From: Nitrosospira multiformis
GTDB lineage: Bacteria > Pseudomonadota > Gammaproteobacteria > Burkholderiales > Nitrosomonadaceae
Direction: 5' to 3'
DNA length: 64,000 bases
Assembly: GCA_017306155.1 (NCBI GenBank)
Contig: JAFKJB010000012.1
Coordinates: 62,001-126,000, forward strand
The notes under the pieces are model-generated. The model was not told the origin of the DNA. It saw only the letters and a program-made list of their open reading frames with translations, and did no database searches. Shown here one piece after another: positions 1,617 to 17,478 of this stretch. The position numbers and the translations under genes are program-made. Numbering within the stretch: position 1 is the stretch's first letter; each line of letters begins with the position of its first letter.

Positions 1617-1620
<4 letters not shown>

Positions 1621-2543
1621 GGCCGCTCCGTCATGGCTGCCGCAACTGTTGCCCGATCAAGATGCGGGGCAAACATTTCGATGAAATCATACACGTATTT
1701 GCGCAGATAACTGTTGCGGCTGATACCAATGCGTGTCGTGCTGGGTTCGAACAGGTGGCTGGCGTCGATAGCCCGCAAATGCTTGTCGCGTGAAGGCTCA
1801 AACGCCATCTGCGCCAGTATCCCGATCCCCAGTCCCAGTTCCACATAGGTTTTAATGACATCAGCATCAATCGCCGTGAGCACGACATTGGGAACCAGGC
1901 CTTTTGCATCGAATGCCTGATTGATCTTCGAGCGGCCGGTAAATGCAAAATCATAAGTGATGATCGGATGCTCGGCGATCGCTTCCAGTGTCAATTCCTT
2001 GAGTTTGAGCAGAGGATGCCTGGGTGGAACGATTATGCAACGGTTCCACTGGTAGCAGGGCAGCATGACGAGTTCGCTGAACAGTTCGATCGCTTCCGTG
2101 GCAATCGCTATGTCGGCCACCCCGGATGTGACCAGTTCAGCGATCTGTGTCGGATTGCCCTGGCGTAAAACCAGTCGCACCTTGGGGTAGCGTGCGGTAA
2201 AATGCTGGATTGCGGAAGGCAACGCATACCGCGCCTGTGTATGGGTCGTAGCGATAGTCAGAGAGCCGCTCGCTTCATTGGCAAATTCCTGCCCCACCTG
2301 CTTCAGGTTTTTTGCGTCTCTTAACATTCTTTCGGCAATTTCGAGAATCGCCCGGCCGGGTGGCGTGGTTTCAACCACGCGCTTGCCGTTTCGTACAAAA
2401 ATATCCACCCCCAGTTCGTTTTCCAGCAGGCGGATCTGCTTGCTGATACCAGGCTGGGAAGTATGGAGAATTTCCGCCGCCTTGGATAAGTTCAGGCCCT
2501 GGTTGGCGACTTCGCATAAATAACGCAATTGCTGCAATTTCAT
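1617..2543 (-). CDS. cysB: LysR-family regulator, CysB/Cbl type
   Basis: 308 residues, the normal length for a CysB-like LysR regulator. An N-terminal winged helix-turn-helix (about residues 1-60, with the segment AAEILHTSQPGISKQIRLLE) is followed by a periplasmic-binding-protein-like effector domain. Its sequence follows the CysB/Cbl pattern: the TTHTQARY stretch near 100, YDFAFTGRS near 200, and GLGIGILAQMA near 235. CysB proteins activate sulfate-assimilation operons and respond to O-acetylserine or N-acetylserine. The gene is divergent from cysI across 183 bp that contain a strong inverted-repeat operator. This supports the assignment and suggests control of both itself and the cys run. 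It ends inside the mutL start codon. It could equally be called cbl, since the two paralogues cannot be separated by eye. Confidence 0.93.
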
Positions 2544-2726: not shown

Positions 2727-4820
2727 ATGGGTTATCTGGATAACCTCGCGAATGACGGGGAAATAGCTTTATACGATCAGTCGGTACAGGAGTACCGCGA
2801 TCTGAAAATGGATGTTACGCGCTTTACTGCCGGCCGCCTTCAGATGGGAATTTACGGCCAGCGGCAGGAAGGGGTCAACATGGTGCGTATCAAGCTGCCC
2901 GGCGGACGGGTATCCGCTCCGAAACTGCGAACGATCGCCTCCGCTCTGGAGAAATTCTCCCGGCATGATGTGGTCCATATCACCACGCGCCAGGATATCC
3001 AGATGCATTACGTGCCTCTGGAGCAGACGCCGGCCACCTTGCGCCACCTGGCGGAGGGGGGATTGACCACGCGCGAGGCATGCGGCAATACGATACGGAA
3101 TATAACGACCTGTCCCCTCTCCGGGGTATGTCCACGCCAGCATACCGACGTCACCCGGCATCTGGAGGGAACGGTGCGGCATATGCTGCGCAATCCCCTG
3201 ACGCAGCAGATGCCGCGCAAGTTCAAGATCAGCCTGTCAGCGTGCGAAGCCGATTGTGCGCAGGGGATGATGCATGATCTCGGCGTCATCGCGGTACGCA
3301 ATGGCGACCGCTTCGGCTTCAAGGTGGTCGCGGGCGGCGGGCTCGGGCACAAGCCGCACGAAGCTATCGTAGTAGAAGAGTTCATCGAGGAGAAAGACCT
3401 GCTGGCGGTGATGGAGGCGGTGATCCAGCTGCATAACCGCTACTCGGACCGGGCAAAACGCGCCAAGTCACGGATCAAGTTTCTTGTGGATAAATTTGGT
3501 CCGGAAGGGTTTGTCGAGAAATATCGCGAAGAGTTGGTTCGTACCAAATCGGCACTGGCAACCGTGGATTATCCGAAAGGAGAGTGGAGTGCCGGGGGCG
3601 ATGGGGAAGCGCCGGGCATCGGTGCACCGCGCCGCATTTTCCCGCAGAAGCAGGCGGGCTACTATGTGTTCCCCATCAGTGTGCCGATGGGGAATCTGGA
3701 CGTGACCCAATTGCGCGGTCTTGCCGATATCTGCGACACATTCGATCTGCCCGATATCCGCACCAGCCAGGATCAGAACATGTTCCTGCCAGACGTGCCC
3801 GAAGCCAAAATCGAGCCCCTGCGGGCTGCCCTTGCTGCTTTGGGGCTGGGAGTGCCGAAGGCAGGCGATGATGTGGTGGCGTGTCCGGGAACATCGACCT
3901 GCCGTCTGGGGATTACTTCCAGCACGATCGTAGGACCCAAGCTGAGCGGCGGCGAGCATGACCTGAAGATACGGGTATCAGGATGCCATAACGGCTGCGC
4001 GCAGCCGGAAGCGGGAGATATCGGCATCTACGGTGAAGGCAAGCGCATGCACGGCAAGCTCGTGCCGCATTACCAGATGCATTTCGGCGGTAATGGGATG
4101 GCGCGTGGCGCGCTGGCGTTCAAAGGTCCATCGGTGCCGACGGCCCGCGTCGAGGAGGCGGTGAAGCGGGTGCAATCGGCTTTTTCCGCCACACGTGAGG
4201 CGGATGAGCCCTTCTTTTCCTGGGCGCATCGGAAGGATAAGGCCTATTTCAATGATCTGCTGGCGGATCTGGTGGAGGTCAAACCCGAACAAGTGGAATC
4301 TGTTCTGCGCGATCATGGCCAGAAGGCTGATTTCAAGGTGTTGCAATTGGGCGGGGGGGAGTGTGCCGGCGTGGTTCAGACAAAGACCGGTACGAGCTTT
4401 TTCGAAGCGGCGCACGAGCGCAATTACCGGGATGCGCTCAAGTTTCAACTGAAATTTGCCGATTCTGTCGCATGCGCCGAAGAAATCGCGCGCTTGCTCG
4501 CACAAGGCACGCTGGAATTGATTGGCGGCGAGAAGCGCGATGACCTGTCGGGTTTGGCGGAGGAGTTTAGACGCTTGCTGCCCACCAAGCCGAGGTTGTC
4601 GCGGCAGTTGGCTAAATTCGCAGAAGATTTTGCGAGCCCGGCGGAAGAGTTGAATGATGCTCGCCTGACCGAGTGGTTTGCCGAGCTGGATACGTGGACG
4701 ATGGAGGTTGCGCAGTTCTGCCTGGATTTCGACCGCGGGCTCGATCTGGAGGGGGCGCTGCCAAGGCCGCTTCCCGCCAGGGCCGCGATGGGACGGGCGC
4801 CTTCCTCGGCAACTGTCTGA
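2727..4820 (+). CDS. cysI: Sulfite reductase hemoprotein with C-terminal extension
   Basis: Reduces sulfite to sulfide with six electrons during cysteine biosynthesis. The ferredoxin-like half domains and the paired siroheme domains fill about residues 1-540. The siroheme/[4Fe-4S] ligands are visible as C386-x5-C392 and C420-x3-C424. An ACEADCAQG stretch sits near residue 173. At 697 residues it is about 130 longer than the classical 550-570-residue CysI. The extra segment, from about 540, contains an LGGGECAGVV motif and then alpha-helical sequence that faintly recalls HEPN-type helical domains (uncertain). The start is well supported by GGAGG eight bases upstream of the ATG. cysH follows after 42 bp. 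No cysJ flavoprotein or cysG is present, so the electron donor is probably ferredoxin or an unlinked reductase. Confidence 0.93.
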   Translation: MGYLDNLANDGEIALYDQSVQEYRDLKMDVTRFTAGRLQMGIYGQRQEGVNMVRIKLPGGRVSAPKLRTIASALEKFSRHDVVHITTRQDIQMHYVPLEQTPATLRHLAEGGLTTREACGNTIRNITTCPLSGVCPRQHTDVTRHLEGTVRHMLRNPLTQQMPRKFKISLSACEADCAQGMMHDLGVIAVRNGDRFGFKVVAGGGLGHKPHEAIVVEEFIEEKDLLAVMEAVIQLHNRYSDRAKRAKSRIKFLVDKFGPEGFVEKYREELVRTKSALATVDYPKGEWSAGGDGEAPGIGAPRRIFPQKQAGYYVFPISVPMGNLDVTQLRGLADICDTFDLPDIRTSQDQNMFLPDVPEAKIEPLRAALAALGLGVPKAGDDVVACPGTSTCRLGITSSTIVGPKLSGGEHDLKIRVSGCHNGCAQPEAGDIGIYGEGKRMHGKLVPHYQMHFGGNGMARGALAFKGPSVPTARVEEAVKRVQSAFSATREADEPFFSWAHRKDKAYFNDLLADLVEVKPEQVESVLRDHGQKADFKVLQLGGGECAGVVQTKTGTSFFEAAHERNYRDALKFQLKFADSVACAEEIARLLAQGTLELIGGEKRDDLSGLAEEFRRLLPTKPRLSRQLAKFAEDFASPAEELNDARLTEWFAELDTWTMEVAQFCLDFDRGLDLEGALPRPLPARAAMGRAPSSATV

Positions 4821-4862: not shown

Positions 4863-5621
4863 ATGAGCCTGGATCAAAAAATCGCAGAGGCGCGCATATT
4901 GCTGGAAAAGGTGCAGAAAGATCATGCGCCTGCCACCTTCGCCAACAGTTTCGGCGCCGAGGACATGGTGCTGACCGATCTCATTGCGCGGCATTATCCG
5001 GATATCGGGATGCTCACACTGGATACCGGACGGCTTCCGCAGGAAACCTATGATCTCATGCAGCAGGTTACCGAGCGGTACGGCATCCGGATTCCAGTCT
5101 ATTTTCCGGACGCTGCCGCAGTGGAAGCATACGTGGCGCAGAACGGCCCCAATGCGTTTTACGACAGCGTGGATTTGCGCAAGAAGTGCTGCCGCATCCG
5201 CAAGGTCGAACCGTTGAAGCGCGCCTTGAGAGGCAAGCACGCATGGATTACCGGCTTGCGCCGGGATCAGGCGCCTACCCGGAAGGATCTGGCCGCATCG
5301 GAGTTCGATGCCGAGAACGGCCTGCAAAAATTCAGCCCCCTGCTGGACTGGAGCCAGGCTGATGTATGGGCGTATCTCAAGCAGTTCGATGTGCCCTACA
5401 ACGCCCTGCACGACAAGGGTTACACGAGTATCGGATGCGCTCCTTGCACTCGCGCCATTACCCCTGGCGAGGATGTTCGCGCCGGCCGCTGGTGGTGGGA
5501 GGATCCGGAAATCAAGGAATGTGGCCTACACCCCGGCAAAAAACATGGCGCCCAGAATGTCGCAAGCGCCACCCCTGCCGGTTCAGGCGCGGTAGTAAAG
5601 GATCTGGCTGTTTCAGATTGA
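4863..5621 (+). CDS. cysH: Assimilatory adenylylsulfate (APS/PAPS) reductase
   Basis: Reduces activated sulfate (APS, possibly PAPS) to sulfite with thioredoxin or glutathione-type donors. 252 residues with a PAPS-reductase/ATP-pyrophosphatase fold. The [4Fe-4S] ligand pairs C109-C110 and C192-x2-C195 are present. These mark the iron-sulfur APS-reducing class rather than the enterobacterial PAPS reductase. The catalytic cysteine is in the C-terminal ECGLH motif (C220). It sits 42 bp after cysI and 114 bp before cysD, on the same strand, consistent with one transcript. No cysC (APS kinase) is seen here, which fits direct APS reduction. Confidence 0.95.
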   Translation: MSLDQKIAEARILLEKVQKDHAPATFANSFGAEDMVLTDLIARHYPDIGMLTLDTGRLPQETYDLMQQVTERYGIRIPVYFPDAAAVEAYVAQNGPNAFYDSVDLRKKCCRIRKVEPLKRALRGKHAWITGLRRDQAPTRKDLAASEFDAENGLQKFSPLLDWSQADVWAYLKQFDVPYNALHDKGYTSIGCAPCTRAITPGEDVRAGRWWWEDPEIKECGLHPGKKHGAQNVASATPAGSGAVVKDLAVSD

Positions 5622-5735
5622 ATGCGGATCCCGGAGAGTGGAAATAAAAGACGTCAGCGAGTGCAGCAGCGGTAGCAGAAACAAGGGAATCAGGAATCGC
5701 ATGAAGCGCCTCCTGAACTGAATGGGGATTGTTTG

Positions 5736-6737
5736 ATGGACGTTATTTTGAATCAAATGGATGAATTTGCACCTGTTGCAGGGCCGGTTGCAGGTCTTGT
5801 GATGAAGAATGAACCGGTGGTCATCAAGCGGCGTGTCGTGCGGCAACTTGGCCATCTTGAAGCACTGGAAAGTGAAGCAATCCACATCATGCGCGAGGTC
5901 GCGGCCGAGTGTGCCAATCCCGCTCTACTCTTTTCCGGTGGCAAGGACTCGATTGTTCTTCTGCGTCTGGCGGAAAAGGCTTTCCGCCCAGGACGTTTCC
6001 CGTTTCCTTTGATGCATGTCGATACTGGCCATAATTTCCCGGAAGTGATCGAGTTTCGTGACCGCCGTGTCAAGCAACTCGGTGAGCGTTTAATCGTTGC
6101 CAGCATGGAAGACTCGATCAAGCAGGGAAGGGTGGTGCTGCGCTCGGAAAATCAGAGCCGTAATCCCTTTCAATCCGTAACGCTGCTGGATGCCATCGCC
6201 GAGCATGGTTTCGATGCCTGTATTGGCGGGGCGCGGCGCGACGAGGAGAAAGCGCGGGCCAAGGAACGCATATTTTCCTTCCGGGATGAATTCGGCCAAT
6301 GGGACCCGAAGAACCAGCGTCCGGAATTATGGGATCTTTACAATGCAAGAGTTCATCCGGGAGAAAATATCCGCGTATTTCCCATCAGCAACTGGACGGA
6401 ACTCGATGTGTGGGAATACATCTCGCGCGAGGGGCTGGAGGTGCCGCACATCTATTTCGCCCACAGGCGCGATGTCATCCGGCGCGGCAGCGGCCTTTTG
6501 CCGATATCGCACCTGGTTCAGCCGAAGGAAGGGGAAAAGGTTGAGAATCTCATGGTGCGCTTCCGGACGGTGGGTGACATGAGCTGCACCTGCCCGGTGG
6601 AGTCGGCAGCGGTCGGTATCGGGGAAATCATTGCAGAGACGGCGATTACGCGAATTACTGAACGGGGTGCAACGCGCATGGACGACCAGACATCGGAGGC
6701 TTCCATGGAGTTGCGCAAGAGAGAAGGGTATTTCTGA
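5736..6737 (+). CDS. cysD: Sulfate adenylyltransferase subunit 2
   Basis: Catalytic subunit of ATP sulfurylase, which makes APS from sulfate and ATP; it works as a heterodimer with CysN. The PP-loop motif SGGKDS is at about residues 67-72, and the later RRDEEKARAKER and ENIRVFPISNWTELDVWEY stretches are typical of the family. I place the start at the ATG at 5736; the in-frame TTG immediately before it (5733) is an alternative. The protein carries about 30 N-terminal residues before the usual CysD beginning, so an internal ATG near 5802 is also possible. cysN follows after 142 bp with a terminator-like hairpin in between. Confidence 0.95.
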   Translation: MDVILNQMDEFAPVAGPVAGLVMKNEPVVIKRRVVRQLGHLEALESEAIHIMREVAAECANPALLFSGGKDSIVLLRLAEKAFRPGRFPFPLMHVDTGHNFPEVIEFRDRRVKQLGERLIVASMEDSIKQGRVVLRSENQSRNPFQSVTLLDAIAEHGFDACIGGARRDEEKARAKERIFSFRDEFGQWDPKNQRPELWDLYNARVHPGENIRVFPISNWTELDVWEYISREGLEVPHIYFAHRRDVIRRGSGLLPISHLVQPKEGEKVENLMVRFRTVGDMSCTCPVESAAVGIGEIIAETAITRITERGATRMDDQTSEASMELRKREGYF

Positions 6738-6879: not shown

Positions 6880-8169
6880 ATGTCAGTTATTGAAAATATT
6901 TCCTTCGATCATTCGGAGTTATTGCGTTTCATTACCGCCGGCAGCGTGGATGACGGCAAAAGCACGCTGATCGGCCGCTTGCTGCACGACTCAAAATCGA
7001 TTTTTGAAGATCAGCTGAGCGCGATCGCCCATACTTCCCGTAAGCGCGGGATGGAAGCTGTCGATCTGTCGCTGCTCACCGATGGCCTCCAGGCAGAACG
7101 CGAACAAGGCATTACCATCGATGTAGCCTATCGTTACTTCGCCACCCCCAAGCGTAAGTTCATCATTGCTGACACGCCGGGGCATGAGCAATATACCCGC
7201 AATATGGTAACCGGCGCTTCCACCGCCAATCTCGCCATTATCCTGATCGATGCCCGCAAGGGTGTGCTCACGCAATCCCGCCGTCATGCCTACCTCGCCA
7301 GCCTCGTCGGTATTCCTCATCTGGTGGTGGCGGTCAACAAGATGGATCTGGTGGGTTATTCCCAGGACGTGTTCGAGCGAATCTGCCAGGAATTTCACCG
7401 TTTCGTTGCCGGACTCAATCTGAAAAACATCGCTTATATTCCGATGTCTGCCCTGAACGGCGACATGGTGGTCGAGCGCGGCAGTAACCTCGGCTGGTAC
7501 AAAGGCATGACGCTGATGGATTTACTGGAAAAGGTTCCGGTTGACCATGACATCAACCTTGAAGATTTTCGCTTTCCCGTGCAATTGGTATGTCGCCCGC
7601 AAACGGAGGAATGGCATGACTTCAGGGGCTACATGGGCCGTATCGAATCCGGTTCCATCAGTGTGGGTGACGAGGTGCAGGTTCTGCCTTCCGGCCTGAC
7701 CTCGCGCATCAGGGAAATCGTCACTTATGAAGGAAATGTCGAGGATGCGGTTGCGCCCCAGTCGGTAACGCTGACGATTGAAGATCATCTGGATATATCA
7801 AGAGGGGACATGCTGGTAAAAACTTCCCAGCTTCCCCAGGTTACAAAAGAATTTGATGCGATGCTGTGCTGGTTGTCTGAGCAGAGCCTCGATTCCCGGC
7901 GCAAATACCTGATCAAGCACACCACACGGGTGGTAAAAGCCGTCATATCCCGCATAGATTATCGGCTGGATATCAATACCCTGAACCATGACGCCGCTGA
8001 TACTCTCAAAATGAATGACATTGCGCGGGTATCGCTCAAGGTCCATCAGCCTCTGGTATGGGATGCATACCCGCGTAATCATGCGACCGGGAGCTTCATC
8101 GTGATCGATGAGGTTACGAACAATACCGTGGCCGCAGGGATGATCTGTCCTTCAAAAGGCCAGGGCTGA
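6880..8169 (+). CDS. cysN: Sulfate adenylyltransferase subunit 1 (GTPase)
   Basis: GTP-binding regulatory subunit of ATP sulfurylase; GTP hydrolysis drives APS synthesis by CysD. The translation-factor-type GTPase motifs are clear: GSVDDGKST at residues 21-29, DTPGHEQY from 98, and NKMD at 153-156. They are followed by EF-Tu-like domains II and III. 429 residues, slightly shorter than enterobacterial CysN (about 475). There is no fused C-terminal CysC kinase domain, in keeping with a pathway that reduces APS directly. It is the last gene of the cys run before a 288-bp gap. Confidence 0.95.
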   Translation: MSVIENISFDHSELLRFITAGSVDDGKSTLIGRLLHDSKSIFEDQLSAIAHTSRKRGMEAVDLSLLTDGLQAEREQGITIDVAYRYFATPKRKFIIADTPGHEQYTRNMVTGASTANLAIILIDARKGVLTQSRRHAYLASLVGIPHLVVAVNKMDLVGYSQDVFERICQEFHRFVAGLNLKNIAYIPMSALNGDMVVERGSNLGWYKGMTLMDLLEKVPVDHDINLEDFRFPVQLVCRPQTEEWHDFRGYMGRIESGSISVGDEVQVLPSGLTSRIREIVTYEGNVEDAVAPQSVTLTIEDHLDISRGDMLVKTSQLPQVTKEFDAMLCWLSEQSLDSRRKYLIKHTTRVVKAVISRIDYRLDINTLNHDAADTLKMNDIARVSLKVHQPLVWDAYPRNHATGSFIVIDEVTNNTVAAGMICPSKGQG

Positions 8170-8457
8170 CGACAAGCCCCGCGGGCTGTCAGGTCTGTAA
8201 GGCAGCAGAGCAGCCGGCAGTTCAATGTTGCAGGGGCCGGCGGCACCACGCATTCCGAATGCTCAACAGGCCTTGTAGACAGATAGGACAGACAAGGGGC
8301 GGATAAGGGGAACAGGACCTTGCCGCTTTTGTGTTTTTAAAGCGGGAAAAAGCACAAACTGAAAAGGGATATAAAACTTTTCGTACATGATCAGTTCTGA
8401 TAGCTGATGATTTTTGTCTCATTTTGATTTCACTTATAACTTTTGAATGACTTTATC
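8170..8457. other. Intergenic region after cysN
   Basis: No credible gene. Just after the cysN stop, GACAAGCCC and GGGCTGTC form a GC-rich hairpin (about 8171-8190, one bulged A) without a T-run. The remainder becomes AT-rich toward 8457 and presumably carries the promoter of the next gene; no convincing -35/-10 pair was identified. Confidence 0.4.
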
Positions 8458-11400
8458 ATGACAAGTTTACAATCGGCGCTTCACCCGGCACAGGCATCTG
8501 AGGTTCCCTCTCCGGCGCTGGGGTTTGGCATGGCTTTTGCCGACCTGTATCGTCGGGAAGGGCTGGTGAGACTGGATCAGGCATTCCTTGGTTTTCTCTC
8601 CGAAGGAGAGCCGGGGCTGCGTGTTCGCCTGGAGCAGGCACGAATCCAGCCCGATCATCTCGATCGCAAGGAAGAGGCCGCGCTGCTGATTGAAGTCGCG
8701 CCCTGGATGGAGGATTTCATTGCCAGACTGTTCGGCATAGAGAAGGAAGCCGGAGCGCTTGCCGCACGTCATCATCAGCTGGCACCCCTTTATTCCTGCA
8801 AGAGGCTGTTCGTGCAGCGGCGCGCCATGAACAAAGTCAGCGAGGCGGATGCCGCCGCAGTGGATGGCGTTGCACTGGAAGCAAAACTGGCGGCTGAATT
8901 CGGCGCTCCTTTCTCAGAGCTGGTTTTTGCAACAAAAGTGGCGGAGTGGCTGCTGGACGAGGGCGCGAATGAAGACCGCCTCAAGGATGCCTTGCTGTAT
9001 GCCGCCTGGGCGTTAAAGACTCCTGCGGGACGGGAGCGCAATGCAACGGGCGTATTGTTCAAGGCCCCGGCCAAGCTCGATTTCCTGCATCTGCTGTCAA
9101 CGGAAACGGACACGTCGGCAGGTTATACCGTTCACAAGCTTCATCATGTACGGCGCCGGGAAGGATTTTCCCTCACCGACCAGGGAACCGACCTGACGGG
9201 CGCCCTGGATGAGTCGAATTACTGCATCTGGTGCCATGAACAGGGAAAGGATTCCTGCTCCAAGGGGATGAAAGAAAAACAAAAAACACCCGATGAGCCT
9301 GTTAACTTCAAAAAAAGCCAGCTTGGCGTGCTGCTGACAGGATGCCCTCTGGAAGAGCGCATTTCGGAATTTCACAAACTCAAGACGCAGGGCGTGGCGA
9401 TAGGCGGCCTCGCGATGATTGTCATCGACAATCCCATGTGTGCCGGCACGGGGCATCGTATCTGCAACGACTGCATGAAATCCTGCATTTACCAGAAGCA
9501 GGAACCGGTCGATATCCCGCAGGCCGAGACGCGCACCCTCAAGGATGTCCTGGAACTGCCCTGGGGATTCGAGATCTACAGCCTCCTGACCCGCTGGAAT
9601 CCGCTCAATCTGCGTCGCCCGGTGCCGAAGGCGCCGACGGGCCGCAAGGTGCTGGTGGTGGGCATGGGGCCGGCGGGGTATACCCTGGCGCATCATTTGA
9701 TGAATGACGGCCATACCGTGGTTGGAATCGATGGCCTCAAGATCGAGCCCCTGGAACCGGAACTCTCGGGCGTGAACAAGCAGGGAGAGCATGTTCCGTT
9801 CAGGGCCATCCGCAATACCGATGAGCTGTCGGAGAACCTGGATGAGCGTATGCCCGGCGGGTTCGGCGGTGTTGCGGAGTACGGCATCACCGTTCGTTGG
9901 GACAAGAACTTTCTCAAGCTGATCCGCCTGCTTCTGGAGCGTCGGGAGGAGTTTGCGCTTTTTGGCGGGGTCCGCTTCGGCGGAACGCTTACTGCGGACG
10001 ATGCCTTCGCCATGGGGTTCGATCATGTAGCACTTGCCGCAGGGGCAGGGCGTCCTACCGTGCTCGATTTGCCCAATGGCCTGGCGCGCGGCGTTCGCGC
10101 TGCCTCCGATTTCCTGATGGCATTGCAGCTGACCGGGGCGGCCCAGACCAACTCGGTTGCCAACATGCAGTTGCGCCTGCCGGTGGTGGTCATCGGGGGA
10201 GGACTGACAGCCATCGATACCGCGACCGAAGCACTGGCATACTATCCCGTGCAAGTGGACAAGTTCCTCCGCCGATATGAAATTCTTACGGCTGTCCAGG
10301 GTGAAGCAGCAATCCGTGGAGCCTGGGATGAGGAAGAGCGCGAAATTGCCGAGGAGTTTCTCAGTCATGCCAGGGCCATTCGGGCAGAGCGCAGGGAAGC
10401 GGAGCGGGAAGGACGGGTTCCGCGGATACTGGAACTGCTGCAATCCTGGGGAGGCGCGACTATCGCCTATCGAAAACGCCTCATCGACAGCCCCTCCTAC
10501 ACGCTCAACCATGAAGAAGTCGAAAAAGCCATGGAGGAGGGCATATGGTTTGCCGAAGGACTCACTCCCCTCCGTGTGGATACCGATAGGTGGGAGCATG
10601 CGAAGGCGGTGCATTTTGCGGTGCAGGCACTCGACGAAACCGGTTCCTGGCAGAAAACCGGGCAAGCCGTATTGCCTGCCTGCGCTGTTCTGGTCGCAGC
10701 GGGAACGCAGCCCAATACGGTGCTTGCGCGGGAGGACGATAAACATTTCAAGCTGCATGGGCGCTATTTTGCCGCATGCGATGAAAACGGCGATCCGGCC
10801 AGTCCGGCACGCGGAAACCCCAAGCCCGAGCATCCCACCGTACTGTTGAGCCGTAATGAGGATGGGCGTTTCATCAGCTTCTTCGGCGACCTGCATCCGT
10901 CCTATTCGGGAAACGTGGTGAAAGCGATGTCCAGCGCCAAGCAGGGTTATCCCGTGGTCAGCCACGTGCTCGAACGCCTGGCGCCCGCTTCGACGAAGCC
11001 CGCCTGGCTGTTTTTTGCGGAGATCAATGGCAGGCTGCGCGCAACCGTGCACAAGGTCGAACGCCTCACGCCCAATATCGTGGAGGTCGTCGTGCATGCG
11101 CCGATGGCAGTGGAACGTTTTCACCCGGGACAATTTTATCGCTTCCAGAACTTTGCAACGCTTGCCACAACCGCAGGCGATACCAAGCTGGCGATGGAAG
11201 GCATCGCGCTTACCGGCGCCTCGGTGGATGTTTCCCGCGGCCTGGTTTCGCTCATCGCGCTGGAAATGGGCGGGTCCGCGGATTTATGCGCAAGGCTCAA
11301 TCCGGGAGATCCCGTGGTTCTGATGGGCCCGACTGGCACGCCTACAGAAATTCTGCCGGATGAGACCGTGGCATTGGTGGGCGGGGGGCTCGGTAATGCC

Positions 11401-12036
11401 GTACTGTTCTCCATCGGGGCTGCGGCCCGGGCTGCAGGATCGAAAATTTTGTATTTTGCCGGCTACAAGAAGCTGATCGACCGTTACAAGGTAGCTGAAA
11501 TCGAAGCCGCAGCCGACGTGGTGATCTGGTGCTGCGACGAAGCACCCGGCTTCACGCCTTCCAGGCCGGGCGATTACAGTTTTGTGGGGAATATTGTCGA
11601 GGCAATGGCCGCTTATGGAAGCGGTGCCCTGGGGCCGCAGAAAATCCGTCTGGCGGACGCCGATCGCATCATTGCCATTGGTTCCGACAGGATGATGGCG
11701 GCTGTGGGTGCTGCCCGCCATACCAGGCTCAAGCCCTATCTGAAAACGGACCATTTCGCCATCGGCTCCATCAACTCACCGATGCAGTGCATGATGAAAG
11801 AAATCTGTGCTCAATGCCTGCAACCGCATAAGGACCCGAAGACCGGAGAGGTTACCTATGTCTTCTCGTGCTTCAACCAGGACCAACCACTCGACCAGGT
11901 CGATTTCGGTGGACTGGCGTCGCGTTTGCGCCAGAACAGCGTGCAGGAGAAACTGACCACCCGCTGGATCAGCCATTGCCTGAAAGAGACGAGCCAGCCG
12001 GAGCTCGAAGCTTCTGCGGAACCGGTCATTAAGTAG
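8458..12036 (+). CDS. NfnAB-like FAD/iron-sulfur oxidoreductase fusion (GltD-like + PyrK-like)
   Basis: A 1192-residue protein in at least three parts (numbered from the ATG at 8458; an upstream in-frame TTG lies at 8443). Residues 1-250 match no domain I know. A Cys motif follows (C256-x2-C259-x7-C267). Then comes a second cluster with C328, C336, C339 and C343 ahead of a PVDIPQ segment, as in the iron-sulfur linker of GltD. A GltD-type flavin/NADP part follows, with dinucleotide-binding motifs near 398 (VVGMGPAGY) and 578 (VIGGGLTAID). From about 855 the sequence resembles PyrK/NfnA ferredoxin reductase, with a [2Fe-2S]-type ligand set C1111-x5-C1117-x2-C1120-x17-C1138. The family is usually labelled only 'FAD-dependent oxidoreductase'. 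A role in NADPH/NADH/ferredoxin electron exchange is inferred from this architecture and from the adjacent transhydrogenase genes. Confidence 0.85.
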   Translation: MTSLQSALHPAQASEVPSPALGFGMAFADLYRREGLVRLDQAFLGFLSEGEPGLRVRLEQARIQPDHLDRKEEAALLIEVAPWMEDFIARLFGIEKEAGALAARHHQLAPLYSCKRLFVQRRAMNKVSEADAAAVDGVALEAKLAAEFGAPFSELVFATKVAEWLLDEGANEDRLKDALLYAAWALKTPAGRERNATGVLFKAPAKLDFLHLLSTETDTSAGYTVHKLHHVRRREGFSLTDQGTDLTGALDESNYCIWCHEQGKDSCSKGMKEKQKTPDEPVNFKKSQLGVLLTGCPLEERISEFHKLKTQGVAIGGLAMIVIDNPMCAGTGHRICNDCMKSCIYQKQEPVDIPQAETRTLKDVLELPWGFEIYSLLTRWNPLNLRRPVPKAPTGRKVLVVGMGPAGYTLAHHLMNDGHTVVGIDGLKIEPLEPELSGVNKQGEHVPFRAIRNTDELSENLDERMPGGFGGVAEYGITVRWDKNFLKLIRLLLERREEFALFGGVRFGGTLTADDAFAMGFDHVALAAGAGRPTVLDLPNGLARGVRAASDFLMALQLTGAAQTNSVANMQLRLPVVVIGGGLTAIDTATEALAYYPVQVDKFLRRYEILTAVQGEAAIRGAWDEEEREIAEEFLSHARAIRAERREAEREGRVPRILELLQSWGGATIAYRKRLIDSPSYTLNHEEVEKAMEEGIWFAEGLTPLRVDTDRWEHAKAVHFAVQALDETGSWQKTGQAVLPACAVLVAAGTQPNTVLAREDDKHFKLHGRYFAACDENGDPASPARGNPKPEHPTVLLSRNEDGRFISFFGDLHPSYSGNVVKAMSSAKQGYPVVSHVLERLAPASTKPAWLFFAEINGRLRATVHKVERLTPNIVEVVVHAPMAVERFHPGQFYRFQNFATLATTAGDTKLAMEGIALTGASVDVSRGLVSLIALEMGGSADLCARLNPGDPVVLMGPTGTPTEILPDETVALVGGGLGNAVLFSIGAAARAAGSKILYFAGYKKLIDRYKVAEIEAAADVVIWCCDEAPGFTPSRPGDYSFVGNIVEAMAAYGSGALGPQKIRLADADRIIAIGSDRMMAAVGAARHTRLKPYLKTDHFAIGSINSPMQCMMKEICAQCLQPHKDPKTGEVTYVFSCFNQDQPLDQVDFGGLASRLRQNSVQEKLTTRWISHCLKETSQPELEASAEPVIK

Positions 12037-12431: not shown

Positions 12432-13559
12432 ATGCATATAGGAATACCGGCAGAAACCCGCGGGGAAGAGACCCGGGTTGCCGCCACGCCGGAGACGGTC
12501 AAGAAATTTACCGCCAAGGGTTTGCATGTCGTTCTGGTCCAGTCTGGCGCTGGTGCGGGCGCGAGCATACCGGACGAGGAGTACCGGGCTGCCGGAGCAA
12601 GTATTGTGACCGACCCCGGCGAGCTGTATGGCCAGTCTCAGATCGTGCTCAAGGTGCGCGCGCCCGAGGCATCCGAACTTGCATTGATGCGCAAGGATGC
12701 CGTATTGGTTGGGCTGCTTTCTCCGCATCAGGCCGAGGGCATCGAGGCGCTTGCGGCTCACGGCATAACCGCTTTCTCGATGGAGAAACTGCCGCGCATC
12801 TCGCGTGCCCAGAGCATGGATGTGCTGTCGTCACAGGCCAACATTGCCGGATACAAGGCGGTGATCATGGCCGCCAATATTTACCAGAAATTTTTTCCCA
12901 TGCTGATGACAGCCGCCGGTACGGTAAAGGCGGCGAGGGTATTGGTTCTCGGCGCAGGGGTGGCGGGATTGCAGGCGATTGCGACCGCCAAACGGCTGGG
13001 GGCGGTAATCGAAGCATTCGATGTGCGCCCGGCAGCCAAGGAGCAGGTGGAAAGCCTGGGCGCCAAATTCGTCGAGGTTCCGCTCAGCGATGAGGAAAAG
13101 GCACAAGCGGAAACCGCGGGCGGATACGCGCGCGAGATGTCGGAGGATTACAAACGCCGCCAGAGCGAGCTGGTGCACCAGCGTGCCGCAGCAGCCGACA
13201 TTATCATTACGACGGCGCTGATTCCCGGCCGTCCGGCCCCCGTGCTGATCCGGGAAGAAACGGTGCAGGCGATGAAGCCGGGTTCTGTCATTGTCGACCT
13301 GGCGGTTGAAGCCGGCGGCAATTGCCCCTTGTCTGAATTGAACAAGGTCGTCGTGAAACATGGCGTGCATCTCGTCGGCATTGCCAATCTGCCCGGACTG
13401 GTAGCCGCCGATTCCAGCGCTCTGTATGCACGTAATCTGATGAATTTTCTCAACCTGATGCTCGACGCGAAGACGGGTGAGCTCAACATAAACCGTGAGG
13501 ACGAAATCATCGCCGGAACCTTGGTGTGCGCCAATGGAGAAGTCATCGGGAAAACCTGA
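12432..13559 (+). CDS. pntAA: Proton-translocating NAD(P) transhydrogenase, alpha subunit part 1
   Basis: The soluble NAD(H)-binding domain I of the membrane transhydrogenase, which uses the proton gradient to drive hydride transfer from NADH to NADP+. 375 residues, an AlaDH/PNT-type fold with the Rossmann motif VLGAGVAGLQA around 172-182. The characteristic RQSELVHQRAAAAD loop is near residue 240. The gene ends where the membrane part would begin in enterobacterial PntA, so this is the split form found in Rhodospirillum and many betaproteobacteria. GGGAG lies about 7 bp before the ATG. pntAB follows after 104 bp containing an inverted repeat. Confidence 0.96.
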   Translation: MHIGIPAETRGEETRVAATPETVKKFTAKGLHVVLVQSGAGAGASIPDEEYRAAGASIVTDPGELYGQSQIVLKVRAPEASELALMRKDAVLVGLLSPHQAEGIEALAAHGITAFSMEKLPRISRAQSMDVLSSQANIAGYKAVIMAANIYQKFFPMLMTAAGTVKAARVLVLGAGVAGLQAIATAKRLGAVIEAFDVRPAAKEQVESLGAKFVEVPLSDEEKAQAETAGGYAREMSEDYKRRQSELVHQRAAAADIIITTALIPGRPAPVLIREETVQAMKPGSVIVDLAVEAGGNCPLSELNKVVVKHGVHLVGIANLPGLVAADSSALYARNLMNFLNLMLDAKTGELNINREDEIIAGTLVCANGEVIGKT

Positions 13560-13663: not shown

Positions 13664-13969
13664 ATGATTGGTGAAATTGACCCAACCATTATTAATCTCA
13701 CGGTATTCGTGCTGGCCGTGTTCGTGGGTTATCACGTGGTCTGGAATGTGACTCCAGCCCTGCACACGCCATTGATGTCGGTGACCAATGCGATTTCCGG
13801 CATTATCCTCGTCGGCGCCATGCTTGCCGCCGGGCCGGCGGAAACCGACTGGGGCGTATGGCTGGGGGCTGCCGCGGTAACGCTGGCTGCGATCAATGTA
13901 TTCGGCGGGTTTCTTGTTACCCAGCGGATGCTGGAAATGTTCAGAAAAAAAGATAAAAAAGGAAGCTAG
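13664..13969 (+). CDS. pntAB: NAD(P) transhydrogenase, alpha subunit part 2 (membrane)
   Basis: 101 residues forming the membrane-embedded C-terminal part of the alpha subunit. Three hydrophobic segments are evident (about residues 9-25, 38-58 and 64-88). The [19 protein letters not shown] segment is highly typical of this family. An AAAAGGAG ribosome-binding site precedes the ATG. The stop is separated from the pntB start by only 3 bp, so the two are surely cotranslated. Confidence 0.95.
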
Positions 13970-16356: not shown

Positions 16357-17478
16357 ATGCCTATGCTGATCGGATTGCCCAAAGAAACGAAAGACCATGA
16401 AAACAGAGTCGGCATGACTCCAAGCAACGTCAAGGCATTGACGCGCCGCGGCCACCGCGTGCTTGTGCAAAAGGGAGCAGGAGAAGGCAGTTTTCTTTCG
16501 GACGATGAATATCGCCTGGCAGGAGCTATGATTGTTCCGCGGGCGGAAGATGCGTGGGCAGCGCAACTGGTGATCAAGGTCAAGGAACCGACTTCTGCGG
16601 AATATGGTTATCTGCATCGGGACATGATTCTTTTCACTTATCTTCATCTGGCCTCGGACCGTCCTCTTGTCGAGGCTTTGCTCGGGAGCGGCGTTACGGC
16701 TGTGGCTTACGAAACGGTGCAAACCGCAGATGGGAAATTGCCGTTGCTGGCGCCCATGAGCGAGGTGGCGGGACGCATGGCTACCCAGATCGGCGCGACC
16801 TATCTGCAAAAAACACAAGGGGGGCGAGGCGTGTTGATGGGCGGTGTTCCTGGTGTGGCCGCGGCCAACGTCGCCATTCTCGGTGCAGGCATCGTGGGAA
16901 CGAATGCTGCCCGCGTCGCTGCGGGGTGTGGCGCCCAGGTCACCGTGCTGGATGTGAGCCACGACCGCCTGAAATACCTGGATGACATATATCGTGGGCA
17001 GTTGCAGACGCGCTTCAGCGATGAATACAATATCGAGGAAGCGGTCTACAATGCCGATCTCGTCATCGGTGCGGTTTTGATCCCAGGGGGACGAACCCCC
17101 TGGCTGGTAACGGCGGATATGTTGCCGAAAATGCGAAGAGGATCGGTTATCGTCGATGTGGCCGTGGATCAGGGGGGATGCATCGAAACAAGTCGACCCA
17201 CTACCCACAGCAACCCAACCTATGAGATCGAGGGGGTGGTGCATTATTGTGTCGCGAACATGCCGAGCGCCGTTCCTCGTACCAGCACCTTCGCACTTAG
17301 TATCCAGACGGCGATCTATATCGTGCAGCTAGCGGATGAAGGCCTGGATGCGGTCAGAAAAAATCCGGCATTGAAATACGGAATGAACACGCATCGCGGA
17401 TCGGTCACTTATCCCACGATTGCGCAGGAATTTGATATGCGATATGTCGATCCCTTGCAGGCGCTGGGAAAAGCCTGA
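16357..17478 (+). CDS. ald: Alanine dehydrogenase
   Basis: NAD-dependent interconversion of alanine with pyruvate and ammonia. 373 residues; the ATG at 16357 is followed two codons later by another (16363), which gives the usual MLIGLPKE beginning. Catalytic-site segments are visible: R17 in the ENRVGMTP stretch, K76 in VIKVKEP, H97 in YLHLA, and a Rossmann motif AILGAGIVG near 172-181. It belongs to the same AlaDH/PNT superfamily as PntAA four genes upstream, but the full length and catalytic residues make it a true alanine dehydrogenase. In an ammonia-based lifestyle it could assimilate ammonium or recycle NADH. Confidence 0.94.
   Translation: MPMLIGLPKETKDHENRVGMTPSNVKALTRRGHRVLVQKGAGEGSFLSDDEYRLAGAMIVPRAEDAWAAQLVIKVKEPTSAEYGYLHRDMILFTYLHLASDRPLVEALLGSGVTAVAYETVQTADGKLPLLAPMSEVAGRMATQIGATYLQKTQGGRGVLMGGVPGVAAANVAILGAGIVGTNAARVAAGCGAQVTVLDVSHDRLKYLDDIYRGQLQTRFSDEYNIEEAVYNADLVIGAVLIPGGRTPWLVTADMLPKMRRGSVIVDVAVDQGGCIETSRPTTHSNPTYEIEGVVHYCVANMPSAVPRTSTFALSIQTAIYIVQLADEGLDAVRKNPALKYGMNTHRGSVTYPTIAQEFDMRYVDPLQALGKA

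What the first reader, a model, noticed from the sequence alone, without database searches (positions are those of the whole stretch)
8458..12036. Giant NfnAB-like oxidoreductase with an unassigned 250-residue N-terminus
One polypeptide joins a GltD-like flavoprotein part and a PyrK/NfnA-like ferredoxin-reductase part, the two halves of the electron-bifurcating NADH:ferredoxin-NADP reductase. It adds three visible Cys clusters (256-267, 328-343, 1111-1138). The first 250 residues match nothing I recognise. A bifurcating or transhydrogenating enzyme in one chain, next to a membrane transhydrogenase, would be an unusual redox device for an aerobe.
Basis: partly seen in the sequence, partly recalled or inferred. 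Interest (0 to 1): 0.7.

Follow-up and report, generated by a model that had tools for sequence, protein, structure and literature searches.

The report
Single-chain Nfn-like enzyme for sulfur assimilation
An ammonia-oxidising bacterium carries, inside its sulfate-assimilation gene cluster, one giant protein that combines both halves of an anaerobe-type electron-splitting enzyme plus an unknown helical domain, and it most likely passes electrons from NADPH through ferredoxin to sulfite reductase.

Summary
ORF 8458-12036 (+) encodes 1192 aa: a family-private all-helical domain (residues ~21-205), two [4Fe-4S] sites plus a GltD/NfnB-like FAD/NADP(H) module (~232-845), then an NfnA/PyrK-like module with a [2Fe-2S] site (~855-1175). 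A full-length model (pLDDT 84.7) matches NfnI L and S. Seven Cys, Glu357, Arg480 (= NfnL Arg201), the NADP motif and four [2Fe-2S] Cys are kept in 93 of 93 relatives. The family is known but uncharacterised (PRK06567-like, below cut-off). The membrane transhydrogenase is a lineage-specific neighbour. The recurrent link is sulfur and ferredoxin: cysB/cysI-H-D-N here, divergent cysD-cysNC operons in two other genomes, and a GntR-flavoprotein-ferredoxin-ABC cluster in six Betaproteobacterial loci and Acidithiobacillus caldus. The host has sulfite reductase, but searches found no CysJ, stand-alone ferredoxin reductase or GltB. Best reading: a single-chain NAD(P)H:ferredoxin oxidoreductase feeding sulfite reductase. 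Bifurcation is possible but unproven; three deep lineages have lost or degraded the NAD site yet keep the other sites.

The parts
8458..12036 (+). single-chain NfnB-NfnA-type oxidoreductase, 1192 aa (alternative TTG start at 8443)
8518..9072 (+). residues ~21-205: family-private all-helical N-terminal domain
   Evidence: AF2 alone pLDDT 92.3, pTM 0.72; no credible Pfam, PDB sequence, PDB fold (53) or BFVD (79) match; in 17 of 17 strong genome hits it lies in this ORF
9151..9537 (+). residues ~232-360: two [4Fe-4S] sites, proposed ligands C256 C259 C267 C296 C336 C339 C343 E357
   Evidence: aligned with NfnL from C296 on, the first three Cys placed by pattern; 93 of 93 conserved
9625..10992 (+). 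residues ~390-845: GltD/NfnB-like FAD and NADP(H) module, with R480 at the NfnL R201 position
10273..10455 (+). residues ~606-666: helical insert inside the NADP(H) subdomain, 61 aa
   Evidence: model helices 616-620, 625-651, 657-663; length 61 in 87 of 93
11020..11982 (+). residues ~855-1175: NfnA/PyrK-like FAD, NAD(H) and [2Fe-2S] module
11788..11871 (+). proposed [2Fe-2S] ligands C1111, C1117, C1120, C1138
   Evidence: 93 of 93 conserved
1617..2543 (-). cysB (LysR regulator), divergent from cysI
   Evidence: NCBIfam PRK12684 and PRK12681 over cut-off
2727..4820 (+). cysI: NirA-family-like nitrite/sulfite reductase, 697 aa
   Evidence: best: NirA family and ferredoxin-nitrite reductase, below cut-offs; NIR_SIR over cut-off at this place
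4863..5621 (+). cysH, (phospho)adenylylsulfate reductase
   Evidence: over cut-off
5733..6737 (+). cysD, sulfate adenylyltransferase subunit (true start may lie further down)
   Evidence: over cut-off
6880..8169 (+). cysN, sulfate adenylyltransferase subunit
   Evidence: over cut-off
12432..13559 (+). pntAA, proton-translocating transhydrogenase alpha, first part
   Evidence: PRK09424 over cut-off
13664..13969 (+). pntAB, transhydrogenase alpha, last part
   Evidence: matches positions 425-509 of PRK09424
13973..15352 (+). pntB, transhydrogenase beta
   Evidence: PRK09444 E 4e-170, full length, below its cut-off

Best explanation
The protein is a single-chain NAD(P)H:ferredoxin oxidoreductase of the NfnB-NfnA kind. 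NADPH, which the neighbouring Pnt transhydrogenase can make from NADH with proton-motive force, reduces the FAD of the GltD/NfnB-like module. Electrons leave one at a time through two [4Fe-4S] clusters to a ferredoxin (FdxA is encoded in the genome). Ferredoxin then reduces the assimilatory sulfite reductase CysI, for which no CysJ partner was found. The NfnA-like arm ([2Fe-2S], second FAD, NAD site) either takes a second electron, which makes NADPH-to-ferredoxin transfer bifurcating with NAD+ as high-potential acceptor, or lets NADH serve as an alternative donor. The private helical domain may be a docking or oligomerisation element. Shown here: architecture, conservation of the proposed cofactor ligands, gene neighbourhoods, and what family searches did not find in the genome. 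Inferred: cofactor binding itself, electron direction, ferredoxin as partner, sulfite reductase as end user, co-transcription, and the role of the N-domain.
For: Fold match to both NfnI subunits, and 93 of 93 conservation of the proposed [4Fe-4S] and [2Fe-2S] ligands, R480 and the NADP motif. Gene order cysB/cysI-cysH-cysD-cysN-gene-pnt in the window. A CysI homolog lies in 27 of 80 loci. Among these, cysI is of unlike types (14 window-like at 63-85%, 12 of a 578-aa type only 27-30% identical to the window's, and L077's own), yet the oxidoreductase stays. The link recurs with other cys genes: L110 has cysI-siroheme synthase-cysH-cysD-cysNC-gene with a 2-bp gap, and in L117 cysNC overlaps the gene's start by 4 bp. 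Their CysD/CysN are only 35-40% identical to the window's, while the oxidoreductase is 59-60%. A NIR_SIR protein lies directly upstream in L077. FdxA is the gene directly upstream in the A. caldus pTcM1 operon and in L075, and is part of the upstream cluster in five Betaproteobacterial loci. Host genome: no CysJ at E <= 1e-60; one FAD_binding_6 protein, a Fer2-fused 349-aa reductase; one further NAD_binding_1 protein, ferric-reductase-like; one TrxR-family protein; no GltB; FdxA present. G063, with a second type of cys operon, has sulfite reductase but no FAD_binding_6 protein, no CysJ at that threshold and only one TrxR.
Against: No assay exists. Sulfite reduction does not need a ferredoxin-level potential (recalled), so a bifurcating enzyme is not thermodynamically required. 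Of the 80 loci, 27 have CysI and 6 the GntR-flavoprotein cluster; most of the rest show no sulfur or ferredoxin neighbour with the queries used, and several are short contigs. G343 keeps the gene but has no NIR_SIR protein at all, so sulfite cannot be the only use. In family f39, FAD_binding_6 counts do not differ between carriers (23 in 8 genomes) and non-carriers (27 in 10). The KorAB neighbours in L116 and L118 lie tail to tail with the gene, not in one operon, and both genomes are of one genus, so they count for little. G355 and G343 have a second TrxR-like protein that could be a ferredoxin reductase, and the host has a Fer2-fused reductase. Rnf and Fix complexes were not searched in the host; Gallionellaceae iron oxidisers, some of whose kin carry this gene, are reported to have Rnf (PMC10734462, passages). 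The gaps of 288 bp (cysN to the gene) and 395 bp (gene to pntAA) leave co-transcription open.
Confidence: 0.52

Rival explanations
1. True electron-bifurcating transhydrogenase in an aerobe: 2 NADPH + NAD+ + 2 Fdox give 2 NADP+ + NADH + 2 Fdred (or the reverse), as in NfnAB, with Pnt recycling the NADH. It overlaps with the best explanation and differs in requiring coupled NAD+ reduction.
For: Both FAD modules, the NAD and NADP motifs, all proposed cluster ligands and the N5-Arg equivalent are present in the window protein; pnt is adjacent in 23 of 80 loci.
Against: StnC has the same Arg and is described as non-bifurcating at that flavin (PMC10482914). The Glu ligand position is also Glu in the GltD chain 7mfm_I. 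L113 has deleted, and L122 and L102 have degraded, the NAD motif. No PntAA or PntB hit in the 14 stretches fetched from other carriers.
Confidence: 0.25
2. Direct reductase partner of sulfite reductase (a CysJ replacement): the helical N-domain docks CysI and no free ferredoxin is needed.
For: cys operon linkage in three separate places of the tree; no CysJ found in the host; private N-domain in 17 of 17 strong hits.
Against: Other copies sit with ferredoxin and no CysI. G343 has the protein but no NIR_SIR protein. CysI is of unlike types beside the same enzyme.
Confidence: 0.1
3. Glutamate synthase small subunit or a fused GltD, as the NCBIfam name suggests.
For: GltD-family NCBIfam and PDB matches.
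Against: No GltB (GXGXG) match in the host or in G343; the NfnA half and N-domain are foreign to GltD; Arg instead of the Lys of the GltD chain 7mfm_I at the N5 position. Three other carriers tested (G102, G063, G355) do have GltB.
Confidence: 0.03
4. NADH/NADPH transhydrogenase or NAD(P)H balance enzyme without ferredoxin, working beside Pnt.
For: Two nucleotide sites in one chain; pnt neighbour in 23 of 80 loci.
Against: The proposed Fe-S ligands are conserved in 93 of 93 while the NAD motif is kept in 90, the opposite of what a pure transhydrogenase needs; ferredoxin-linked neighbours recur.
Confidence: 0.07

Closest known systems
NfnAB / NfnI (5jca, 4ylf)
   Same: Both folds, FAD and nucleotide motifs, [4Fe-4S] ligand positions with the Glu, N5-Arg position
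   Different: One chain in B-then-A order; extra helical N-domain; 61-aa insert in the NADP domain; four Cys at the [2Fe-2S] site (an Asp ligand in NfnA is recalled, not tested); found here in aerobic lithotrophs
'Pattern C' fused Nfn of Actinobacteria, Alpha- and Gammaproteobacteria (PMC6405883)
   Same: Single chain with the NfnA part at the C-terminus (passages)
   Different: About 200 aa longer than other fused Nfn according to the review; no N-domain is described in the passages seen; also uncharacterised
NCBIfam NF005128 / PRK06567 'putative bifunctional glutamate synthase subunit beta/2-polyprenylphenol hydroxylase'
   Same: Aligns from residue 21, N-domain included, 763.4 bits
   Different: Below the 1072-bit cut-off; the model has 1031 positions, and the window's match leaves model 914-965 against about 115 residues around the NAD site unaligned
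StnC / NfnABC large subunits (8oh5, 9bov, 9n5u)
   Same: GltD-like NADPH module with two [4Fe-4S] clusters in StnC; sequence and fold matches to all three
   Different: StnC carries a NuoG-like part and works with StnAB; no NfnA homologue in Stn
CysJ and ferredoxin-NADP reductases (Fpr, TrxR-type)
   Same: Proposed job: carry electrons from NADPH towards sulfite reductase
   Different: Different domains; not found in the host apart from a Fer2-fused reductase

Membership tests
NfnAB-type electron-bifurcating transhydrogenase | GltD-like module with FAD, NADP(H) and two [4Fe-4S] sites | tested here: met
   Fold and ligands in 93 of 93; the first three Cys are placed by pattern, not by an aligned template
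NfnAB-type electron-bifurcating transhydrogenase | NfnA module with FAD, NAD(H) and [2Fe-2S] | tested here: met
   Fold TM by target length 0.86 to 5jca_S; NAD motif intact in the window and in 90 of 93 rows, the window counted; the [2Fe-2S] site itself did not align reliably
NfnAB-type electron-bifurcating transhydrogenase | Arg at flavin N5 (NfnL R201) | tested here: met
   R480 aligned with one gap, 93 of 93; a low-confidence loop (472-476) lies next to it in the model
NfnAB-type electron-bifurcating transhydrogenase | Glu ligand of the proximal [4Fe-4S] cluster | tested here: inconclusive
   E357 invariant, but the GltD chain 7mfm_I has Glu there too, so it does not discriminate
NfnAB-type electron-bifurcating transhydrogenase | Coupled NADPH/NAD+/ferredoxin reaction, short-lived anionic semiquinone | not testable with these tools
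   Needs purified enzyme
NfnAB-type electron-bifurcating transhydrogenase | Two subunits, nfnA before nfnB (the common arrangement) | tested here: not met
   One chain, B then A; fused forms exist too
NCBIfam NF005128 (PRK06567) | Score above curated cut-off 1072 | tested here: not met
   763.4 bits; 0 of 398 genomes over the cut-off
Glutamate synthase small subunit (GltD) | GltB partner in the genome | tested here: not met
   No PF01493 match in G000
CysJ (sulfite reductase flavoprotein) | TIGR01931 match | tested here: not met
   No TIGR01931 match at E <= 1e-60 in G000, where this gene lies; the protein's NCBIfam list, best 25 of 31, does not hold it
Pattern C fused Nfn | Fused chain with the NfnA part at the C-terminus | tested here: met
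   Domain order against passages of PMC6405883
Pattern C fused Nfn | Sequence clade membership | not tested
   Their sequences were not fetched

The most novel reading that the evidence does not exclude
Pnt and this enzyme together form a proton-motive-force-driven ferredoxin reductase in aerobic ammonia oxidisers. Pnt spends protons to make NADPH from NADH. The fused enzyme bifurcates NADPH electrons to ferredoxin (low potential) and NAD+ (high potential), and the NADH returns to Pnt. This would be a soluble-plus-membrane counterpart of Rnf or FixABC, used to power sulfur assimilation and other ferredoxin reactions in nitrifiers.
Probability: 0.17. Interest if true: 0.8.

Novelty: new variant of a known kind. 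Interest (0 to 1): 0.5.

Why it matters
Sulfite reductases without CysJ need an electron supply. In the host no stand-alone ferredoxin reductase was found, and in G063 none of the searched classes. A giant Nfn-like chain in the cys operon is a concrete, testable candidate. If it bifurcates, flavin-based electron bifurcation would be at work in the core assimilation of aerobic lithotrophs; the review whose passages I saw names only one aerobe among known Nfn hosts (PMC6405883). If it does not, the family shows how Nfn parts become a plain ferredoxin reductase, with natural variants (A. caldus, L113, L122) that have lost or degraded the NAD site. Either way the public name 'glutamate synthase / polyprenylphenol hydroxylase' is probably misleading.

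Tried and rejected
Co-occurrence with PNTB: uninformative, 352 of 398 Pseudomonadota genomes have it. CysJ anti-correlation: 0 of 17 carriers over the cut-off against 59 of the 381 others, weak and confounded by ancestry; at E <= 1e-60 two carriers (G139, G114) do have a CysJ-like match. FAD_binding_6 counts in 17 carriers and 18 non-carriers that I picked by hand: zero in 3 of 17 against 0 of 18, but no difference inside family f39. KorAB beside the gene (L116, L118): on rechecking the two gene sets are tail to tail, not divergent as I first noted, so I no longer count them as support and lowered the main confidence from 0.55 to 0.52. N-domain identity: Pfam on 69 members (best E 0.015, one member), PDB profile (best E 1.3), Foldseek PDB (best E 2.0) and BFVD (best E 0.89) gave no credible match; a related fold among cellular AlphaFold models cannot be excluded, since that library was not on hand. 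Geometry of the electron path between the two flavins: not measured; no model coordinates were among the files in the Python box. The [2Fe-2S] site could not be aligned reliably to NfnA or PyrK by sequence, so the Cys-for-Asp remark rests on recall. Promoter-like sites 5 against 6.4 expected (sd 2.5) and terminator-like sites 14 against 12.2 (sd 3.7): uninformative. Literature searches (one search returned only unrelated papers) listed no functional study of this family among the titles and abstract starts shown. Rows dropped before counts: L068 and L076 (truncated), L123 (split gene), L085 (G291) and G236 (not fetched) are not in the 93-row set; 15 loci with short flanks were left uncounted in the tree mapping.
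Full report
What is there. The ORF at 8458-12036 (+), with an alternative TTG start at 8443, encodes 1192 aa. It is single copy in a 3.02-Mb, 36-contig genome of 98.3% completeness. The closest named relatives are Nitrosospira briensis and Nitrosovibrio (89-90% identity), so the host is very probably a Nitrosospira-like ammonia oxidiser (inference). NCBIfam places residues 21-725 in PRK06567, 763.4 bits, under its 1072-bit cut-off, and the C-terminal part with PyrK/NfnA-like models, also below cut-offs. Pfam gives Pyr_redox_2 over its cut-off and Fer4_20 below it, and nothing for the C-terminal module. PDB sequence matches include the NfnI L and S subunits.

Structure. An AlphaFold2 model from 70 aligned relatives has mean pLDDT 84.7 and pTM 0.87. 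Foldseek matches 5vj7_A, 5jca_L and 5jfc_L (TM by target length 0.70-0.74) and 5jca_S (0.86) at E 1e-17 to 1e-16. Residues ~21-205 are all helical and, folded alone (residues 15-212), reach pLDDT 92.3. That domain has no Pfam match in the window member and none better than E 0.015 in 69 members, no PDB sequence match better than E 1.3, no PDB fold match better than E 2 and no BFVD match better than E 0.89. A profile of it finds 17 of 398 Pseudomonadota genomes with E <= 3.3e-10, the same 17 that carry the gene, each time in the gene's own frame, plus three weak hits at E 8e-4 to 0.05. As far as this sample shows it is private to this family.

Cofactor sites. Invariant in 93 of 93 are C256, C259, C267, C296, C336, C339, C343, E357; G402, G404, G407; R480; G580, G582, T584, D587, R672; and C1111, C1117, C1120, C1138. 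E357 aligns with the Glu of NfnL and also of the GltD chain 7mfm_I. R480 aligns with NfnL R201, which hydrogen-bonds flavin N5, a condition considered crucial for bifurcation; 7mfm_I has Lys there (PMC10482914 section 9 read, passages). StnC has the same Arg but its flavin is described as non-bifurcating (same source). The NAD-binding glycines G975, G976, G977 and G979 are all intact in 90 of 93; they are deleted in L113 and degraded in L122 and A. caldus L102. The conserved core is thus NADPH-FAD-Fe-S; the NAD arm can be lost.

Neighbourhood. In the window the order is cysB (divergent), cysI, cysH, cysD, cysN, this gene, pntAA, pntAB, pntB. CysI is closest to NirA-family and ferredoxin-nitrite reductase models, below their cut-offs. 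Of the 80 loci, 27 have a CysI homolog: 14 window-like, 12 of an unlike 578-aa type and L077's own. PntAA, PntAB and PntB lie in 23 of 80, including two Nitrotoga loci and L069. Six Betaproteobacterial loci (L036, L037, L042, L047, L053, L070) carry upstream a GntR regulator, a FrdA/AprA-like flavoprotein (67-70% identical to that of A. caldus), a small 4Fe-4S protein, a HEAT protein and a nitrate/taurine-type ABC transporter; FdxA is found in five of the six. NCBIfam names the A. caldus flavoprotein 'fumarate reductase/succinate dehydrogenase flavoprotein subunit' over cut-off, with AprA models further down. The only plasmid hit among 72,556 records (E <= 1e-20) is A. caldus pTcM1, where GntR, flavoprotein, 4Fe-4S, HEAT, FdxA and this gene are consecutive. 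A 2025 paper labels the module ferredoxin/APS reductase/GntR and predicts organosulfonate uptake and assimilation for two plasmid-borne operons (PMC12375680, section 22 read, passages); it does not discuss this gene in the text seen.

Independent recurrence. Of 17 carriers in the phylum sample, the window is one, G236 was not fetched, and stretches were asked for 15; G291's contig is only 4.1 kb, so 14 new loci were analysed. G063 (L110) has cysI, siroheme synthase, cysH, cysD, cysNC and then this gene after 2 bp. G355 (L117) has cysD, cysNC and this gene, overlapping by 4 bp. Their CysD and CysN are 35-40% identical to the window's while this protein is 59-60% identical, so the cys genes are of a different type; L110 and L117 themselves are sisters on the tree and count as one. 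G102 (L114, same family as the host) has cysH-cysD-cysN upstream with regulator genes in between. The other stretches show no cys gene with these queries. In G048 and G206 the gene lies tail to tail with 2-oxoacid:ferredoxin oxidoreductase genes. On a 93-row FastTree tree the cys context falls in three separate places and the flavoprotein-cluster context in two; mapping sulfur against other context needs at least 8 changes, with 15 short-flank loci uncounted. L113, L122 and L102 are long branches whose position is unsure.

What family searches did not find. In the host, CysJ (TIGR01931, E <= 1e-60) has no match. PF00970 finds one protein, a 349-aa Fer2-FNR fusion. PF00175 finds that protein and a ferric-reductase-like membrane protein. 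TIGR01292 finds one thioredoxin reductase. PF01493 finds no glutamate synthase. FdxA is present, and the only sulfite reductase match is the one in the window. G063 has sulfite reductase but no PF00970 protein, no CysJ match and one TrxR. G355 is similar but has a second TrxR-like protein; G343 has neither sulfite reductase nor PF00970 and also has a second TrxR-like protein. These gaps make the enzyme the best candidate for reducing ferredoxin in the host. Rnf and Fix were not searched.

Mechanism and limits. I commit to an NAD(P)H:ferredoxin oxidoreductase that feeds the ferredoxin-type sulfite reductase, with NADPH supplied in part by Pnt (0.52, lowered from 0.55 after the KorAB arrangement was rechecked). 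Against it: no assay; most loci outside Nitrosomonadaceae have no telling neighbour; G343 keeps the gene without a sulfite reductase; inside family f39 carriers and non-carriers have about the same number of FAD_binding_6 proteins (23 in 8 against 27 in 10). True bifurcation is open (0.25 as a rival; 0.17 for the full Pnt-coupled scheme).

Known or new. Fused Nfn with the NfnA part at the C-terminus is described as 'Pattern C', uncharacterised, in Actinobacteria, Alpha- and Gammaproteobacteria (PMC6405883, passages). The family name PRK06567 exists without a tested function as far as the search listing shows. New here are the private helical domain without a known fold, the invariance of the ligand set, the loss of the NAD arm in three lineages, and the repeated link to sulfur assimilation and ferredoxin. 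In the papers held, searches listed no study of this link; only titles, abstract starts and the passages named were seen.

Noticed in passing
L113:7978-11049, L122:7291-10710, L102:9022-12483: Three deep relatives have deleted or degraded the NAD-binding glycine motif of the NfnA-like half but keep all proposed Fe-S ligands: natural variants for testing bifurcation.
   Followed up: partly
window 2727-4820 and L009:2350-4083: Two unlike sulfite reductases (27-30% identical) occupy the same operon position in different Nitrosomonadaceae; the 578-aa type comes with a 173-aa partner.
   Followed up: partly
L036, L037, L042, L047, L053, L070, L102: Conserved GntR, FrdA/AprA-like flavoprotein, small 4Fe-4S protein, HEAT, FdxA (not found in L037), sulfonate-type ABC cluster of unproven function; a DUF971-like protein (name recalled) also lies in the six Betaproteobacterial loci.
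   Followed up: partly
L116:5041-7614, L118:5128-7710: 2-oxoacid:ferredoxin oxidoreductase genes tail to tail with this gene in two genomes of one genus of family f39.
   Followed up: no
G000 whole genome: No PF01493 (glutamate synthase large subunit) match in the window's genome, unlike G102 of the same family.
   Followed up: no
window 16357-17478: Alanine dehydrogenase shortly downstream of pntB on the same strand, itself a relative of PntAA.
   Followed up: no
L034, L039, L053, L062, L077: MAG titles (Bordetella parapertussis, Chitinophaga pinensis, Rhizobium) may be mislabelled: the first four group with environmental Betaproteobacteria and L077 stands apart in the gene tree.
   Followed up: no
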